Positions 520-10,807 of a DNA stretch of 11,675 nucleotides are shown one piece after another. Position numbers and translations under genes: made by a program. Positions within the stretch are counted from its first letter, which is position 1. Each line of letters opens with the position of its first letter. Origin of the DNA: Candidatus Kuenenia stuttgartensis (GTDB lineage Bacteria; Bacteroidota; Bacteroidia; Chitinophagales; Chitinophagaceae); contig CALQJH020000029.1 in the NCBI GenBank assembly GCA_943330835.2, forward strand, positions 1 through 11,675, written 5' to 3'. The notes beneath the pieces were generated by a model. That model saw only the letters and a list, made by a program, of their open reading frames with translations, was not told the origin of the DNA and searched no databases.

Positions 520-2316
520 ATGGCTAATAAGAATATGGATAAATTTATCGTTTCCGCCAGAAAATACAGGCCACAAAATTTTAGTACGGTCATTGGGCAG
601 GCTCATATTACCACTACGCTCAAAAATGCCATCAATAATAACCAGTTAGCTCATGCTTTTTTATTTTGCGGTCCTAGAGGTGTGGGAAAAACAACCTGTG
701 CCAGAATATTAGCCAAGACAATTAATTGTGAAAGCCGAACGAAAGATGGGGAAGCCTGTAACAAATGTAACAGCTGTATTTCTTTTGACAATGGCAATTC
801 CTTCAACATACATGAACTGGATGCGGCCAGTAATAATGGCGTAGATGAAATGCGAAAGCTCATTGAGCAGATCAGATTTGCACCTCAGGCAGGGCAATAC
901 AAAGTGTATATTGTAGATGAGGTTCACATGCTTAGTACGAATGCCTTTAATGCCTTTCTTAAAACACTTGAAGAACCACCACCGTATGCTATTTTTATTT
1001 TAGCCACTACAGAAAAACATAAAATTCTTCCAACAATTCTCAGCAGGTGTCAGATATTTGATTTCAAGCGTATAACCATTAACGATACTGTTGAGCATTT
1101 AGAAGAAATTATTAAAAAAGAAAAGATTGTTGCAGAAAAAACTGCCCTTCATTTTATCGCACAAAAAAGTGAGGGCTGTTTGAGAGATGCACTTAGTATC
1201 CTAGATAAAATTGTAAGTTTCACAGGCGGAAAACTCACTTACAAAAATACACTTGAGCACCTCAATATTCTTGATGAAGATTACTATTTTAAGCTATTAG
1301 ATCAAATGCAGCATCAACAATTAGCAGACACTTTGCTATTGTTTGACGAGATCAACCAAAAGGGATTTGAAGGAGATACTTTCCTTGAAGGATATACAGA
1401 ATTCATCAGAAATCTGCTTGTTTGTAAAGATGAAAAAGCTGCAAAATTACTAGAGGTAGCTGAAGAATTCAAGCCCAGATATGTTGAAAATGCTGCAAAA
1501 ATTGAAATAGGCTGGCTCATTGCTTCTTTAAATATCATCAACGATTCTCTTATACAATACAAACAAACGCGTAACAAAAAGTTACATGTAGAATTGCTTT
1601 TAATAAAATTGGCTTATTTAAAACAGGCCATTGAAATTACTTCTACAGAAAGCGGGTTAAGTAAAAAAAAAATAATTGACACGGTAAAAGCTGTTTCCTT
1701 TAAAGCAATACCCATTACCCTCGCTCCACATTCAAAAAAAGCCGAAAGCACTTCAGCTTCGAAAACGACTACTACAGCGGTTCTCCTTATTGAGGAACCC
1801 AAAAAAACAATTAAACCAATTGCAGCGCCCATATTAAGTCAGGAAATTCCAATCCCTGAAAAAGCAACTGCAAAGCTTGGGTCTTTGAGTAAAATCAGAC
1901 AACAAATTGCCAGTCAGCATAACAAAGAAGTATTATCGACAACGCTCAATATTGAAAAACTATCAGAAGCATGGGAGCTTTTTGTTGAAAAACTTCAACT
2001 TCAAAATAATCATTCTGCCGCCACAAATTTTAAAAATGCGGAGTTGAACATTATTGATGAGCATTCTTTTGAAATCATTACAGAAAGCAATATTCAGCAA
2101 AAATTTATTGAGGGGGAAAGATCCTCTCTTGTTGCGCACGTTCAGGATTTTTTCAACGACAGGACCTTAAAATACCAATTGTTACTTGTAGAAAAAAAAA
2201 TGGAGAGTATCGAGGAAAATGTAAAGGCTATAAATACAAAAGAACATTACAGGATTCTTTCAGAACAATATCCTTTAATAAAAATTTTGAAGGAAACCTT
2301 GAAATTAGACCTATAA
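520..2316 (+). CDS. dnaX: DNA polymerase III subunit gamma/tau
   Basis: This is the clamp-loader ATPase that opens and loads the sliding clamp and, as tau, tethers the polymerase core. Visible motifs are Walker A GPRGVGKT (51-58), four zinc-binding cysteines (70, 80, 83, 86), Walker B/DExH-type VDEVH (132-136) and the sensor motif SRC (175-177). Clamp-loader domain III follows to about residue 375, then a Thr/Ala/Pro/Lys-rich linker (about 390-450) and a C-terminal tau domain to residue 598, a normal tau length. ATG 535 (MDKFIVSARKYRP) is an alternative start five codons later and matches the usual family N-terminus well; neither has a clear Shine-Dalgarno sequence. A run of ten A residues at 1663-1672 sits at the domain III/linker border and may produce a short gamma form (separate entry). 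Identity is near certain. Confidence 0.98.
   Translation: MANKNMDKFIVSARKYRPQNFSTVIGQAHITTTLKNAINNNQLAHAFLFCGPRGVGKTTCARILAKTINCESRTKDGEACNKCNSCISFDNGNSFNIHELDAASNNGVDEMRKLIEQIRFAPQAGQYKVYIVDEVHMLSTNAFNAFLKTLEEPPPYAIFILATTEKHKILPTILSRCQIFDFKRITINDTVEHLEEIIKKEKIVAEKTALHFIAQKSEGCLRDALSILDKIVSFTGGKLTYKNTLEHLNILDEDYYFKLLDQMQHQQLADTLLLFDEINQKGFEGDTFLEGYTEFIRNLLVCKDEKAAKLLEVAEEFKPRYVENAAKIEIGWLIASLNIINDSLIQYKQTRNKKLHVELLLIKLAYLKQAIEITSTESGLSKKKIIDTVKAVSFKAIPITLAPHSKKAESTSASKTTTTAVLLIEEPKKTIKPIAAPILSQEIPIPEKATAKLGSLSKIRQQIASQHNKEVLSTTLNIEKLSEAWELFVEKLQLQNNHSAATNFKNAELNIIDEHSFEIITESNIQQKFIEGERSSLVAHVQDFFNDRTLKYQLLLVEKKMESIEENVKAINTKEHYRILSEQYPLIKILKETLKLDL
1663..1672 (+). promoter_or_regulatory. A10 slippery run in dnaX, candidate gamma-producing slippage site
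   Basis: Ten consecutive A residues encode Lys382-384 plus the first base of the Ile385 codon. Loss of one A gives AAA AAA AAA TAA, a stop at once (1673-1675). Gain of one A, or a -1 ribosomal shift, gives ...AAT AAT TGA, a stop two residues later (1677-1679). Either event yields a protein of 384-386 residues that keeps the ATPase and oligomerisation domains and lacks the tau tail. Thermus thermophilus dnaX is known to make gamma by transcriptional slippage on nine A residues, and E. coli by -1 frameshifting at A AAA AAG. I see no strong stem-loop downstream, nor a Shine-Dalgarno-like stimulator upstream, so transcriptional slippage is the better guess. Function is inferred. Confidence 0.5.
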
Positions 2317-4786: not shown

Positions 4787-5245
4787 ATGAAAACAATAAC
4801 TCAAGCAGTTGTATTACTGTTATTAGTAACAACAACAAACATTGGATTTGCTCAACAAAAAACGGATGCAAATTCAAAAGAAATTTTCGCCAACTTCTCT
4901 GGCAAAGTAGATTTTTCCAAAAGTATTTTACAAACAACCATTGCCGCTAAATCTGGCGAATCAATTTCAATTCCTTTTAATAATGATTTTATTTTTAACG
5001 GCATCGTTTTAACCAACGAGTATAAATATAAAAATCTACAGACGATAATTATCAAATCAGCATTATTGAAAAATGCTTTGTTACAACTTTCTAAAATAAC
5101 CAACGAAGATCTTACCGAATCTTATGTAGGAAGAATTATCAATACTGATGCTAATGACGGTTATACTATTGAAAAAGATGAAGCCAATAATTACAAAATA
5201 GAAAAAATAGAAATGAAAAATATACTACAAGATTGTAGTTTCTAA
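4787..5245 (+). CDS. Small exported protein of unknown function, next to a T9SS metalloprotease
   Basis: The protein has 152 residues and a clear Sec signal peptide: MKT, a hydrophobic core rich in V/L, and a likely cut after IGFA (residue 22) before QQKT. The mature part is about 130 residues, with alternating polar and hydrophobic segments that suggest mostly beta structure, and a final Cys three residues from the end (DCSF). No known domain is recognised, and no lipobox or T9SS sorting domain is seen. It lies 51 bp upstream of the metalloprotease gene on the same strand with no terminator between them, so co-transcription is likely. A dedicated inhibitor, detached propeptide or chaperone of the protease would fit the context, but this is inference only. 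It is not similar to the N-terminal part of the protease as far as I can see by eye. Confidence 0.85.
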   Translation: MKTITQAVVLLLLVTTTNIGFAQQKTDANSKEIFANFSGKVDFSKSILQTTIAAKSGESISIPFNNDFIFNGIVLTNEYKYKNLQTIIIKSALLKNALLQLSKITNEDLTESYVGRIINTDANDGYTIEKDEANNYKIEKIEMKNILQDCSF

Positions 5246-5296: not shown

Positions 5297-6883
5297 ATGA
5301 AAAACTTTACAACATCTATTATTGCATTACTGTGTAGCTTATTAAGTATAACTGCATTCAGTCAGCCAGCTTTAAACAGCTATCCAACAGCAGCCTCTAC
5401 AATTTATCTTGACTTTAATGGACAAGCTGTTACTGGGACTCTTTGGAATGGTGGCAATTCGATTTTTTGTGATGCAGCATTACTCTCTGATACTCAAATT
5501 GAAGAAATCTTTAACCGTGTAGCCGAAGATTATCGTCCATTTGAAATAAATATCACAACTGATTCCACAACTTTTTTAAGAACACCTATCAATAAAAGAA
5601 TCAGAATCATTATCACGCCTACGAGTAGCTGGAAGCCCAATGTTGGCGGAGTTTCTTTTACAGGATCTTTCAAGTGGGGTGATGATACACCAGGATTTGT
5701 ATTTTCAGACAGATTAGACAACAACACTAAGAATATTGCAGAATGCTGCAGTCATGAAAGTGGTCATACACTAGGATTATCTCATCAAAGTAAATATAAT
5801 GTTAATTGCGCTTTAGTAGAAACGTATAATACTGGTATTGGAAGTGGTACAGATGAAACAAGCTGGGCACCAGTTATGGGTAGTAGTTATGGTAAAAATA
5901 TGACCGGATGGAATGACGGCCCAACTCCTTCTGGATGTGGTAGTCTACAAGACAACTTGAGTATTATTACTACCGCAAATGGATTTACTTATCGCTCTGA
6001 TGATTATACTGACTCTCTAAATGCCACTACCCTAGCACTCACAAGTAATAGTTTTAGTGTAGCTGGATTAATAACAACAAGTAATGACAAAGATGCTTTT
6101 ACCTTTTATTTAGATCATACAAAAAGAATATCATTCCAAGCAAATCCTTACGCCGTTGGATTAAAAAATGATGGCGCAAATTTAGATATCAAGATGATGC
6201 TTTATGATGAATCAAAAAATTTAATTCGCACTTATGATCCAGGAGATAACATGAGTGTCGATATTGATACCGTATTAACAAAAGGAAAATACTACATCAT
6301 AATGGATGGTACAGGTAATAATAACACCAGTAATTATGGAAGTTTAGGATCTTATACTTTTAATGGAACAAGTAATAAAATAATTATTAAGTCACTTGGA
6401 TTAGTGGGATCTGCAAATTTAAATGGACATGATCTTCACTGGGACATGATGAATCCACAAGTAGTAAACCAAATAAGCATTGAGCTTTCTGTTGATGGCG
6501 TAACTTTTACTACGTTTAACAACACTTCTATTCGTTCTAAAAGTTTTACTTATACCCCAACGGATAATAATATTAAATACTACAGAATTAAAGCTGAGTT
6601 GATGTCTGATGAGATTGTGTATTCTAATGTGATTAGTTTGAAAGCAACTGAAATAGCAACCAAATCATTTAAAGTTTCTACGCTGATTACCAATCAGATT
6701 ACCGTAAATGCAACTGAAAATTATCAATACAGAATTATGGATATGAGTGGAAGAATGATAGCAAATGGAAATGGAACAACAGGAATGAACAATATTAATA
6801 TGTATAATCCAACAAAAGGAATGTATGTGATTCAATTGTTTGGAAAAAATAATAAACAAGTAGAAAGAATTGTAAAACAGTAA
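5297..6883 (+). CDS. Secreted zinc metalloprotease (metzincin-type) with PPC and T9SS type A sorting domains
   Basis: This 528-residue protein is predicted to leave the cell through the type IX secretion system. Parts in order: a signal peptide (1-22, cleavage after AFS); a catalytic domain (about 30-245) opening with an IYLDFNGQAVTGTLWNGG-like stretch; the zinc-binding motif HESGHTLGLSH, with ligands His153, His157 and His163 and catalytic Glu154; a probable Met-turn in APVMGSSY; a PPC-like beta domain (about 255-360, DAFTFYLD...YYIIMDGTG); an FN3-like segment (about 372-450); and a T9SS type A C-terminal sorting domain (about 455-528, YRIMDMSGRMI...GMYVIQLFG) ending in VERIVKQ. All zinc ligands are present, so it should be active. 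The substrate is unknown. It follows the small exported-protein gene and ends at a strong terminator. Confidence 0.93.
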   Translation: MKNFTTSIIALLCSLLSITAFSQPALNSYPTAASTIYLDFNGQAVTGTLWNGGNSIFCDAALLSDTQIEEIFNRVAEDYRPFEINITTDSTTFLRTPINKRIRIIITPTSSWKPNVGGVSFTGSFKWGDDTPGFVFSDRLDNNTKNIAECCSHESGHTLGLSHQSKYNVNCALVETYNTGIGSGTDETSWAPVMGSSYGKNMTGWNDGPTPSGCGSLQDNLSIITTANGFTYRSDDYTDSLNATTLALTSNSFSVAGLITTSNDKDAFTFYLDHTKRISFQANPYAVGLKNDGANLDIKMMLYDESKNLIRTYDPGDNMSVDIDTVLTKGKYYIIMDGTGNNNTSNYGSLGSYTFNGTSNKIIIKSLGLVGSANLNGHDLHWDMMNPQVVNQISIELSVDGVTFTTFNNTSIRSKSFTYTPTDNNIKYYRIKAELMSDEIVYSNVISLKATEIATKSFKVSTLITNQITVNATENYQYRIMDMSGRMIANGNGTTGMNNINMYNPTKGMYVIQLFGKNNKQVERIVKQ

Positions 6884-9136: not shown

Positions 9137-10807
9137 CTAAAAATCATACGCTCTTGGTTGAATATTCAACCTGATTCCAAAATTGATGATGGTAGACTTT
9201 TGATCGATACTTGCTGTTTTGAAAGTACGATGTTGAATTCCTGCATCAATATAAAGATTGTGTCTGAATTCATAAGAGACATTGAGAATGGTATTCATAC
9301 AAGTAGCCTTATTTCCACTTCCAATACTAAATCCATTGTCTTTCGGACGTGATGAATAGGATTTAAAAATATTACTTCCAAAATTTAAACCTGCAGAATC
9401 CAATCCCTGATAATAATAAATCGTTCTCGCATAAATATTCAATCGCTTGAAGGGCTGATACCTTAATATACCAATGACCTCTTGAAAATTAGCCCCCAAA
9501 GGATGAGCAAGAGTCTGGTTATAATGAGTATAGTTGGCGATCGTATCTGAATGAGAATAAGTGTAAGGTCTTACACGATTCATTTCAACTTGCAAATCAA
9601 GATTTCTGATTCCAAAAGCATCGATATATTTTCCACCTAATTGTATGGCAAATTTATTAGCCCAATTTGTTGGATCATTTTTAACTCTGGATAAAATAAA
9701 CTCGTCAAGCAAAATCTGTCCGTAAAACTGCATACGGTGACGCACATTCGCTTTGAAGTCAAATCCTGCAACAGCATTATCAGGACTACCTACACTACCC
9801 TCAATGTGACGATAAAAAATAATCGGATTTAAATATTGAAAATCGAAATGATCTTTTCTTCCAAAGATTACCCCTTCAAACAATCCAATGTTAAGCCACT
9901 TTGTTGCATTAATACTTAAATGGTGCATGGCTGCATATTTTCTGCCTAATAAAGTATCCCCTATTTTATTATATTGAGGCATCAATTCCATAAAGATATT
10001 CTGATAATTCAACTTCCAGATCTTTGTATTGATTTTTGCAAAAAGATAGCTATTCCCCCAATCGCTTAAAAATAAACTCCTGTAACCATTTCCAATAAAA
10101 TTCTTATCATAACCCAATTGGAAATTAATATATTTTGTAGCTGTAAAAGTTAGATACCCTCTTGCATCAAAATAATCCTGAGCAGATAAATCATTTTTGA
10201 AATCTTTATAAAAACCCACTCCCGGAACTGCTCTAAACTTCCTGACTTGTTGTTGAAAAAAAAGTGGACCTCTCTCCTGGTTATCAATTAACGTTGTAGA
10301 AAATCCTATTTTACCAGCAATCATTCCTCTTACCGAAACACCTCTTGCATTTACATAAAGTTGTTTGTCATTATCAGGTTCCTTGCCCATTTGAAAATTT
10401 ATGATGGGGTTGACTGCAAGAAAAAAATCTTTGCTGTTCACTTCAAAAAAATTCGCTTTCGAATGGTAAAATGTTTTAAGTAAGGAAGTTTTGCTTTTGA
10501 AATAATCGGGATCCTTATTCGTCCACTCACTATTATTAAAATACAAGTGCTGCAAATTATACTGATCAATGGAATTAGTTGAAACAATATTTTGACTATC
10601 CAAAAAACGAGCTTCTTCCACTACATATTTACGATTATAGGGCTTTGCGACAGAAAAATTAAGATGGGTATTTTTTTGTTGTTTTATTTCAAGTCTGTCT
10701 ATAAAATGACAATCATTTGATCCCTGAGAAAAATAAGTCGATTGCGCTTTGCTGTAAATTGGGAAAACCATCAAGAGGAATAAAGAAAGTCTGCAGATAT
10801 ATCTCAT
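9137..10807 (-). CDS. Outer-membrane beta-barrel protein, RemB-like (gliding motility/capsule-assembly type)
   Basis: The product is a 556-residue exported protein with a signal peptide (MRYICRLSLFLLMVFPIYSKA, cut before QST) and a large body of alternating strands rich in Tyr, Phe and Asn, ending in INFGIRLNIQPRAYDF, as expected for an outer-membrane barrel. The segment around residues 307-335, with LFEGVIFGR, FDFQYLNPIIFYR and soon after GSPDNAVAGFDF, resembles Bacteroidota proteins annotated as gliding motility protein RemB and is also reminiscent of Wzi-type capsule-assembly barrels. RemB is known in Flavobacterium johnsoniae as a cell-surface protein with a role in gliding; whether this organism glides is not known. 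The gene is convergent with porT. The family call is moderate, the outer-membrane barrel call is strong. Confidence 0.72.
   Translation of the reverse strand: MRYICRLSLFLLMVFPIYSKAQSTYFSQGSNDCHFIDRLEIKQQKNTHLNFSVAKPYNRKYVVEEARFLDSQNIVSTNSIDQYNLQHLYFNNSEWTNKDPDYFKSKTSLLKTFYHSKANFFEVNSKDFFLAVNPIINFQMGKEPDNDKQLYVNARGVSVRGMIAGKIGFSTTLIDNQERGPLFFQQQVRKFRAVPGVGFYKDFKNDLSAQDYFDARGYLTFTATKYINFQLGYDKNFIGNGYRSLFLSDWGNSYLFAKINTKIWKLNYQNIFMELMPQYNKIGDTLLGRKYAAMHHLSINATKWLNIGLFEGVIFGRKDHFDFQYLNPIIFYRHIEGSVGSPDNAVAGFDFKANVRHRMQFYGQILLDEFILSRVKNDPTNWANKFAIQLGGKYIDAFGIRNLDLQVEMNRVRPYTYSHSDTIANYTHYNQTLAHPLGANFQEVIGILRYQPFKRLNIYARTIYYYQGLDSAGLNFGSNIFKSYSSRPKDNGFSIGSGNKATCMNTILNVSYEFRHNLYIDAGIQHRTFKTASIDQKSTIINFGIRLNIQPRAYDF
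9156..9171. repeat. Perfect 16-bp palindrome in the convergent porT/RemB-like 3' junction
   Basis: GGTTGAATATTCAACC equals its own reverse complement. It lies inside the last codons of the RemB-like gene and 28 bp beyond the porT stop. As RNA it could form a 6-bp stem with a 4-nt loop on either strand. No T-run follows on either side, so it is not a standard terminator, though it is the only hairpin noticed at this junction. Confidence 0.5.

What the first reader, a model, noticed from the sequence alone, without database searches (positions are those of the whole stretch)
1660..1679. A10 run at the gamma/tau border of dnaX with stops in both shifted frames
The ten A residues lie exactly where the clamp-loader domains end and the tau-specific region begins (codons 382-385). 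Reading one base short stops at TAA immediately; reading one base long, or a -1 ribosomal shift, stops at TGA after two Asn. Both give a 384-386-residue gamma form. This mirrors T. thermophilus dnaX, where RNA polymerase slips on nine A residues. Recoding of this kind is little documented for Bacteroidota dnaX. A second long A-run in the gene (A9 at 2192-2200) does not lead to an early stop with one extra A, which argues that the placement of the first is meaningful.
Basis: partly seen in the sequence, partly recalled or inferred. Interest (0 to 1): 0.72.

Follow-up and report, generated by a model that had tools for sequence, protein, structure and literature searches.

The report
Slippery A-run making two DnaX proteins
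A run of ten A's inside the DNA-replication gene dnaX of a Bacteroidota bacterium sits where a slip by the gene-reading machinery would yield a second, shorter clamp-loader protein, and the run is kept at this spot in most sampled relatives, which suggests that the slip is useful and not an accident.

Summary
dnaX is 520-2316 (+); A10 is 1663-1672 (codons 382-385). One A fewer gives TAA at once (384 aa); one A more, or a -1 ribosomal shift, gives Asn-Asn-TGA (386 aa). Both end shortly after clamp-loader domain III.

In 66 of 69 Chitinophagaceae-type genes A9-A11 stands at this place. Of 274 genes from the phylum, 210 have A9-A11 in the border stretch; 64 do not (8 of these have A7-A8). The same ORFs hold 4 other A>=9 runs in 491 kb. 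Both shifted frames stop early above chance.

In 62 of the 210 the frame is broken at the run in the DNA, so tau needs the slip. The tau part is under purifying selection in 17 of 20 tested pairs, 3 being saturated. The layouts need at least 19 changes on one quick tree.

Best explanation: programmed RNA-polymerase slippage as in Thermus thermophilus dnaX. RNA and protein were not tested; -1 ribosomal frameshifting may share. Mechanism and two-ORF layout are in print (PMC1088944, PMC3711429, PMC5009743); I found no paper on the phylum-wide pattern in the library searched.

The parts
520..2316 (+). dnaX, zero frame = tau form (598 aa): clamp-loader ATPase domains I-III plus tau-specific C-terminal part
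1663..1672 (+). A10 slippery run, codons 382-385, proposed site of RNA-polymerase slippage
   Evidence: conservation
1673..1675 (+). TAA met at once if the mRNA has one A fewer (384-aa gamma)
   Evidence: sequence; computed
1677..1679 (+). TGA met after Asn-Asn if the mRNA has one A more, or after a -1 ribosomal shift (386-aa gamma)
   Evidence: sequence; computed
1675..2316 (+). tau-specific coding part (from codon 386), read only from mRNA whose run length is 10 plus or minus a multiple of 3
   Evidence: tau part of window vs L001 dN/dS 0.15 at near-saturated dS of 2.56
2192..2200 (+). second A-run (A9), no A>=8 near this codon in the relatives, no early stop with one extra A: background, not part of the device

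Best explanation
The A10 is a programmed transcriptional-slippage site. While copying it, RNA polymerase makes a mixed mRNA pool. mRNAs with 10 (or 10 +/- 3n) A's are read through as tau (598 aa). mRNAs with one more or one fewer A run into a stop within two codons and give gamma (384-386 aa), the clamp-loader ATPase without the tau part that holds polymerase and helicase (function of tau recalled). Shown here: the site, its products by translation, its conservation, and early stops in both shifted frames above chance. Inferred: that slippage happens at the RNA level, its rate, and that gamma is used. The same device is proposed for most sampled Bacteroidota. If slippage fills both frames, the DNA may encode either tau (as here) or gamma in the zero frame, and the two layouts are scattered over the tree; in the three sister pairs looked at base by base they differ by one A in the run.
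For: 1. Position and length: 66 of 69 Chitinophagaceae-type genes have A9-A11 at this place (the peptide patterns do not cover the site). Over 274 genes the longest A-run in the 195-nt border stretch is A9 63, A10 134, A11 13, A8 1, A7 7, A6 4, A5 7, none of five or more 45. Lengths jump from short to >=9, the length at which slippage in bacteria is discussed (PMC1088944 and PMC5009743, passages). 2. 210 runs at the border vs 4 elsewhere in 491,242 nt of dnaX. 3. One-ORF genes: fewer than 4 codons to a -1-frame stop after the run in 138 of 148 (null 27.5%), fewer than 6 to a +1-frame stop in 112 of 148 (null 30.8%) (which lists nine thresholds; at fewer than 4 the +1 frame has 60 of 148, null 21.8%). 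Thinned at 80% identity 46 of 51 and 34 of 51, at 70% 23 of 26 and 15 of 26. Stops in the +1 frame are not expected from -1 ribosomal shifting alone. 4. All three codon phases are used (34 in phase 0, 78 in phase 1, 98 in phase 2 of 210). 5. No downstream hairpin excess: 50-nt fold energy -6.81 vs -7.27 in-gene control in one-ORF, -8.36 vs -8.59 in two-ORF genes. 6. 62 of 210 have the frame broken at the run with a long open frame after it; in 17 of 20 hand-picked pairs with a two-ORF gene the tau part has dN/dS 0.08-0.33, in 3 synonymous sites were saturated; the 17 pairs cover 24 of the 62 genes. 7. The run is present in 8 of 13 loci of 60-66% GC.
Against: No RNA or protein evidence. 64 of 274 genes lack A>=9 here, including all 9 loci above 66% GC, so the phylum can live without it (L070 and L230 are cut off before the site). 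Presence of the run itself changes at least 22 times on the tree, gain or loss not told. In-frame A_AAA_AAG, the E. coli ribosomal shift heptamer, ends the run in 46 of 60 two-ORF (+1 A) and 23 of 148 one-ORF genes, and by arithmetic every A>=9 run holds an in-frame A_AAA_AAA. SD-like 4-mers upstream are above control (48 of 148 and 15 of 60, control 12-13%), mostly 0-5 nt from the run. The stretch after the run is 0.28-0.59 kcal/mol more stable than mononucleotide shuffles. 60 of 62 two-ORF genes need the same direction (+1 A), as -1 frameshifting would give. 52 of the 148 -1-frame stops are one combination, TGA 5 nt after the run, so the stop test leans on related genes; at 60% thinning it is 5 of 7 and 3 of 7.
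Confidence: 0.82

Rival explanations
1. Programmed -1 ribosomal frameshifting on A_AAA_AAA / A_AAA_AAG makes gamma (or tau in the two-ORF genes), as in E. coli dnaX, with or beside slippage.
For: In-frame A_AAA_AAG in 69 of 210 run genes, 46 of them two-ORF; SD-like 4-mers upstream above control; 60 of 62 two-ORF genes need the -1 frame.
Against: The window has no AAG at the site and none of AGGA, GGAG, GAGG in the 20 nt upstream (sequence). Six A's and a G would do, yet lengths 9-11 prevail and 7-8 are nearly absent (8 of 274). The +1 frame is also stopped early. No stem-loop excess over in-gene control. L058 and L242 need the other direction.
Confidence: 0.12
2. No recoding: the A-run is a by-product of a conserved Lys-Lys-Lys linker in AT-rich DNA.
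For: Lys x3 is common here in Chitinophagaceae; A>=9 in the window as a whole is within chance.
Against: All-AAA in 59 of 69 vs 6 of 19 control KKK; run present in 8 of 13 loci of 60-66% GC; early stops in both shifted frames; frame broken at the run in 62 genes, with selection on tau where tested.
Confidence: 0.03
3. DNA-level contingency locus: replication slippage at the run turns tau on and off in part of the population (phase variation).
For: One-base differences switch layout between sisters: L137 A9 vs L154 A10, L134 A9 vs L129 A10, L063 A9 vs L049 A10.
Against: Tau is expected to be essential for replication (recalled), and layouts are shared by clades of up to 15 genomes, with tau under purifying selection in the pairs tested.
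Confidence: 0.02
4. Assembly or sequencing error in a homopolymer makes the broken frames.
For: 14 of the 23 two-ORF clusters on the tree are single genomes, among them L058, L063, L134, L137, L242.
Against: Cannot explain the window or the other one-ORF genes, where the frame is intact, nor two-ORF clusters of 15, 9, 6, 6 and 4 genomes; 14 changes remain without five doubtful tips.
Confidence: 0.01

Closest known systems
Thermus thermophilus dnaX, A9 transcriptional slippage (PMC1088944 and PMC5009743, passages seen; original Larsen 2000 not held)
   Same: One open tau frame, A-run late in the gene, nearby stops in both shifted frames, gamma from slipped mRNA
   Different: Different phylum; A10 at codon 382 here; no experimental proof here, whereas T. 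thermophilus slippage is reported as demonstrated
Two-ORF dnaX with A7-A10 found by GeneTack (Antonov et al. 2013, PMC3711429, section 23 and passages seen)
   Same: Run at the break, tau needs recoding; the same layout as 62 of the 210 run-bearing genes here; transcriptional slippage proposed there too
   Different: 17 genes from 12 genera; for the A-run genes the section names only Chloroherpeton and Chlorobium species, the nine A10 species are in a supplement that could not be read; one-ORF relatives and switching are not described in the section read
E. coli dnaX -1 ribosomal frameshifting, and the reversed type in which tau is the shifted product (PMC5009743, passages seen)
   Same: gamma = truncated tau; [quoted passage not shown]
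   Different: A_AAA_AAG heptamer with SD-like element and stem-loop; the window has neither AAG nor those SD-like 4-mers, and no hairpin excess over control was found in the run genes

Membership tests
DnaX gamma/tau clamp-loader gene | dnaX_nterm profile and domain III | tested here: met
   TIGR02397 435.5 bits vs 250; PF13177, PF22608, PF12169
dnaX with programmed transcriptional slippage (T. thermophilus type) | A-run of at least 9 at the gamma/tau border | tested here: met
   A10 at 1663-1672; A>=9 in 66 of 69 close relatives, window included
dnaX with programmed transcriptional slippage (T. thermophilus type) | Stops close by in both non-zero frames | tested here: met
   TAA and TGA; group-wide excess in both frames
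dnaX with programmed transcriptional slippage (T. thermophilus type) | mRNA with variable run length, about half of the product short | not testable with these tools
   no RNA reads or protein data available
dnaX -1 ribosomal frameshifting (E. coli type) | A_AAA_AAG in frame | tested here: not met
   window reads AAA AAA AAA ATA; met in 69 of 210 run genes
dnaX -1 ribosomal frameshifting (E. coli type) | upstream SD-like element and downstream stem-loop | tested here: inconclusive
   over 208 genes no hairpin excess over in-gene control; SD-like 4-mers in 63 of 208 vs 12-13% control; none of AGGA/GGAG/GAGG in 20 nt upstream of the window's run (sequence)
Two-ORF dnaX (GeneTack type) | tau frame broken in the DNA at the run | tested here: not met
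   window tau frame is open; met in 62 of 210 run genes

The most novel reading that the evidence does not exclude
Programmed RNA-polymerase slippage at the gamma/tau border is an old and widespread trait of Bacteroidota. It makes the DNA frame downstream of the run nearly neutral, so lineages drift between a tau-encoding and a gamma-encoding dnaX by small changes at the run (at least 19 changes among 210 genes on one quick tree, 14 without five doubtful tips), while both proteins go on being made. About a third of Bacteroidota genomes (60 of the 193 phylum-sample genes) would then carry a dnaX that looks truncated but is not.
Probability: 0.7. Interest if true: 0.7.

Novelty: new member of a known kind. 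Interest (0 to 1): 0.55.

Why it matters
How far gamma matters outside the few bacteria studied is, to my knowledge, open. A slippage site kept across much of a phylum, also in a number of GC-rich genes, says that the short clamp-loader form is under selection there. The repeated exchange of the two layouts is a natural experiment on how a recoding site frees the reading frame, and it warns annotators that dnaX genes of about 360-420 codons in Bacteroidota are probably not defective. It can be tested directly in existing RNA-seq data.

Tried and rejected
Composition alone: A>=9 is within chance for the window, so chance was tested by conservation and position instead. Downstream hairpin as a ribosomal stimulator: no excess over in-gene control, a slight one over mononucleotide shuffles. 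SD-like element: a mild excess that lies mostly 0-5 nt from the run; left as evidence for a ribosomal share. The A9 at 2192-2200: no counterpart seen, rejected as part of the device. The own genome of the window is not held, so the lineage of the window rests on relatives (nearest full-length matches L001-L004 at 68-72% are labelled Chitinophagaceae or Ferruginibacter). No structure prediction and no search of the large protein collection was made. The tree is one FastTree of the gamma part, run columns left out; change counts are minimum parsimony counts on it, and other topologies were not tried. Rows dropped: 4 duplicates (L206, L213, L214, L281) and 5 non-dnaX loci (L253-L256, L282) before all counts; 12 of L001-L080 (ten labelled Bacteroidales, Paludibacter or Paludibacteraceae, one labelled Verrucomicrobia, and the cut-off L070) before the 69-gene count. 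The 68 kept carry mixed labels (mostly Chitinophagaceae, also Sphingobacteriales, Flavobacterium, uncultured). Two of the 198 sampled genomes (G022, G050) had no match over the family cut-off. An earlier pass with a narrower stretch is superseded.

Full report
The finding. dnaX lies at 520-2316 on the + strand and matches DNA polymerase III gamma/tau. Pfam places clamp-loader domain III up to residue 369. The A10 is 1663-1672 and begins thirteen residues after it. Translation of run variants gives 384 aa (one A fewer, TAA) and 386 aa (one A more or a -1 ribosomal shift, Asn-Asn-TGA); the full frame gives 598 aa.

Chance. The window is AT-rich and A>=9 is no commoner than shuffles give, so the run alone would prove nothing. 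Relatives decide. One scan of genome contigs gave the best 80 of 584 loci, by peptide patterns that do not include the run. 69 genes (window + 68) are Chitinophagaceae-type; 12 of the 80 were set aside (ten labelled Bacteroidales or Paludibacter-like, one Verrucomicrobia, and the cut-off L070). In 66 of 69 a run of A9-A11 stands at this aligned place; exceptions are L012 (A8), L017 (A7) and L042, which has none there but an A9 at codon 418. The three Lys codons are AAA AAA AAA in 59 of 69, against 6 of 19 KKK tracts in 189 neighbouring ORFs, where single Lys codons are 3845 AAA to 1107 AAG. Seven genes have AAA AAA AAG; six of these still reach A9 or A10 because the run begins before the Lys codons, by two bases in L007, L008 and L039 and by one base in L028, L032 and L033, the latter as in many all-AAA relatives. 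This fits selection on run length, though six cases are few.

Breadth. A draw of 198 genomes of the phylum was followed locus by locus. G022 and G050 had no match over the cut-off. With duplicates and stray loci removed, 274 genes remain: window, 80, 193 from the phylum draw. The longest A-run in the border stretch (195 nt from about the end of domain III) is A9 in 63, A10 in 134, A11 in 13, A8 in 1, A7 in 7, A6 in 4, A5 in 7 and none of five or more in 45. So 210 of 274 (141 of the 193 phylum genes) have A>=9, and lengths 7-8 are nearly empty. The same ORFs hold only 4 other A>=9 runs in 491,242 nt; flanks of the named loci hold 14 in 264,677 nt. Runs are present in 8 of 13 loci of 60-66% GC, but in 0 of 9 above that, one of which (L230) is cut off before the site. 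Presence of the run changes at least 22 times on the tree, so it has been gained or lost repeatedly.

Frames. In 148 genes the DNA keeps the tau frame (one-ORF). There fewer than 4 codons separate the run from a -1-frame stop (one A inserted) in 138, against 27.5% at other positions of the same genes, and fewer than 6 from a +1-frame stop in 112, against 30.8%. Thinning at 80% identity leaves 46 of 51 and 34 of 51; at 70%, 23 of 26 and 15 of 26; at 60% the sample is small, 5 of 7 and 3 of 7. The -1-frame stops come in 34 combinations of codon and distance, the commonest (TGA 5 nt on) in 52 of 148. In 62 genes the frame breaks at the run (two-ORF): 60 need one extra A to reach tau and 2 (L058, L242) one fewer. 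Of 23 hand-picked pairs, 20 hold a two-ORF gene; in 17 of these the tau part shows dN/dS of 0.08 to 0.33 (some at high dS), in 3 synonymous sites were saturated. The 17 pairs cover 24 of the 62 genes; the rest, L058 among them, were not tested.

Switching. On a FastTree of the gamma part the two layouts need at least 19 changes among 210 tips (200 label shuffles: mean 53.9, least 48), and 14 when five doubtful tips are left out. 14 of the 23 two-ORF clusters are single genomes; the largest have 15, 9, 6, 6 and 4. Sister genes differ by one A: L137 (A9) and L154 (A10); L134 (A9) and L129 (A10); L063 (A9) and L049 (A10). If both frames are filled by slippage, which one the DNA encodes hardly matters; Atkins et al. 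make this point for shifts near 50%, with dnaX as example (PMC5009743, passages).

Mechanism. For RNA-polymerase slippage speak the lengths of nine and more, the use of all three codon phases, early stops in both shifted frames, and no hairpin excess downstream over in-gene control. For a ribosomal share speak A_AAA_AAG in 46 of 60 two-ORF and 23 of 148 one-ORF genes, the SD-like excess and the slight excess of fold stability over mononucleotide shuffles, and the bias to the -1 frame, which insertion-prone slippage would give too. The window itself has neither AAG at the site nor AGGA, GGAG or GAGG in the 20 nt upstream. I hold programmed recoding as near certain and transcriptional slippage as its main form at about 0.8. 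Nothing here measures RNA or protein.

Known work. Slippage in T. thermophilus dnaX is described in PMC1088944 (passages) and PMC5009743 (12 of 20 passages shown, first 300,000 of 475,107 characters held); the original is not held. PMC3711429 (section 23 and passages) reports 17 two-ORF dnaX genes, nine with A10, in species listed in a supplement not readable here; its survey held 20 Bacteroidetes species, so some of the nine may be Bacteroidota. PMC3017870 (passages) reports an A-tract frameshift in the tau part of Blochmannia dnaX, a different place. Searches for dnaX with slippage, realignment, homopolymer, Bacteroidetes, Flavobacterium or Prevotella, for slippage with Flavobacteria, and for clamp loader with Bacteroidetes (one search listed 25 of 30 papers, 12 of 13) showed, by titles and starts of abstracts, no paper on this pattern in Bacteroidota; the library is open-licence PMC only.

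Verdict. The window is a new member of a known kind (slippage dnaX). The wider pattern, a site kept in much of the phylum with repeated exchange of layouts, is the more interesting result and is ready for a test on existing RNA reads.

Noticed in passing
L042 codon 418; L074 codon 464; L079 codon 471: Genes without the run at the usual place have an A9 or A10 farther downstream, each with a stop 4-7 codons from the run start after one extra A: possible relocated slippage sites.
   Followed up: partly
L150, L160, L162, L169, L171, L216, L222, L226, L230: The loci of highest GC (above 66%, read off) lack the run; L230 is cut off before the site. How or whether gamma is made there is unknown.
   Followed up: no
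two-ORF genes such as L240-L242, L244, L248, L273-L276: Open frames of only 363-374 codons in the family search would look like truncated dnaX although a long tau frame follows in another frame.
   Followed up: yes
window 5297-6883 (+): 528-aa protein with an HExxHxxGxxH metal-binding motif (seen by eye) and a weak type IX secretion sorting tail (Pfam PF18962 24.7 bits, cut-off 27).
   Followed up: no
window 9137-10807 (-) and 4787-5245 (+): 556-aa and 152-aa ORFs with signal-like N-termini (by eye) and no Pfam match at 1e-3.
   Followed up: no
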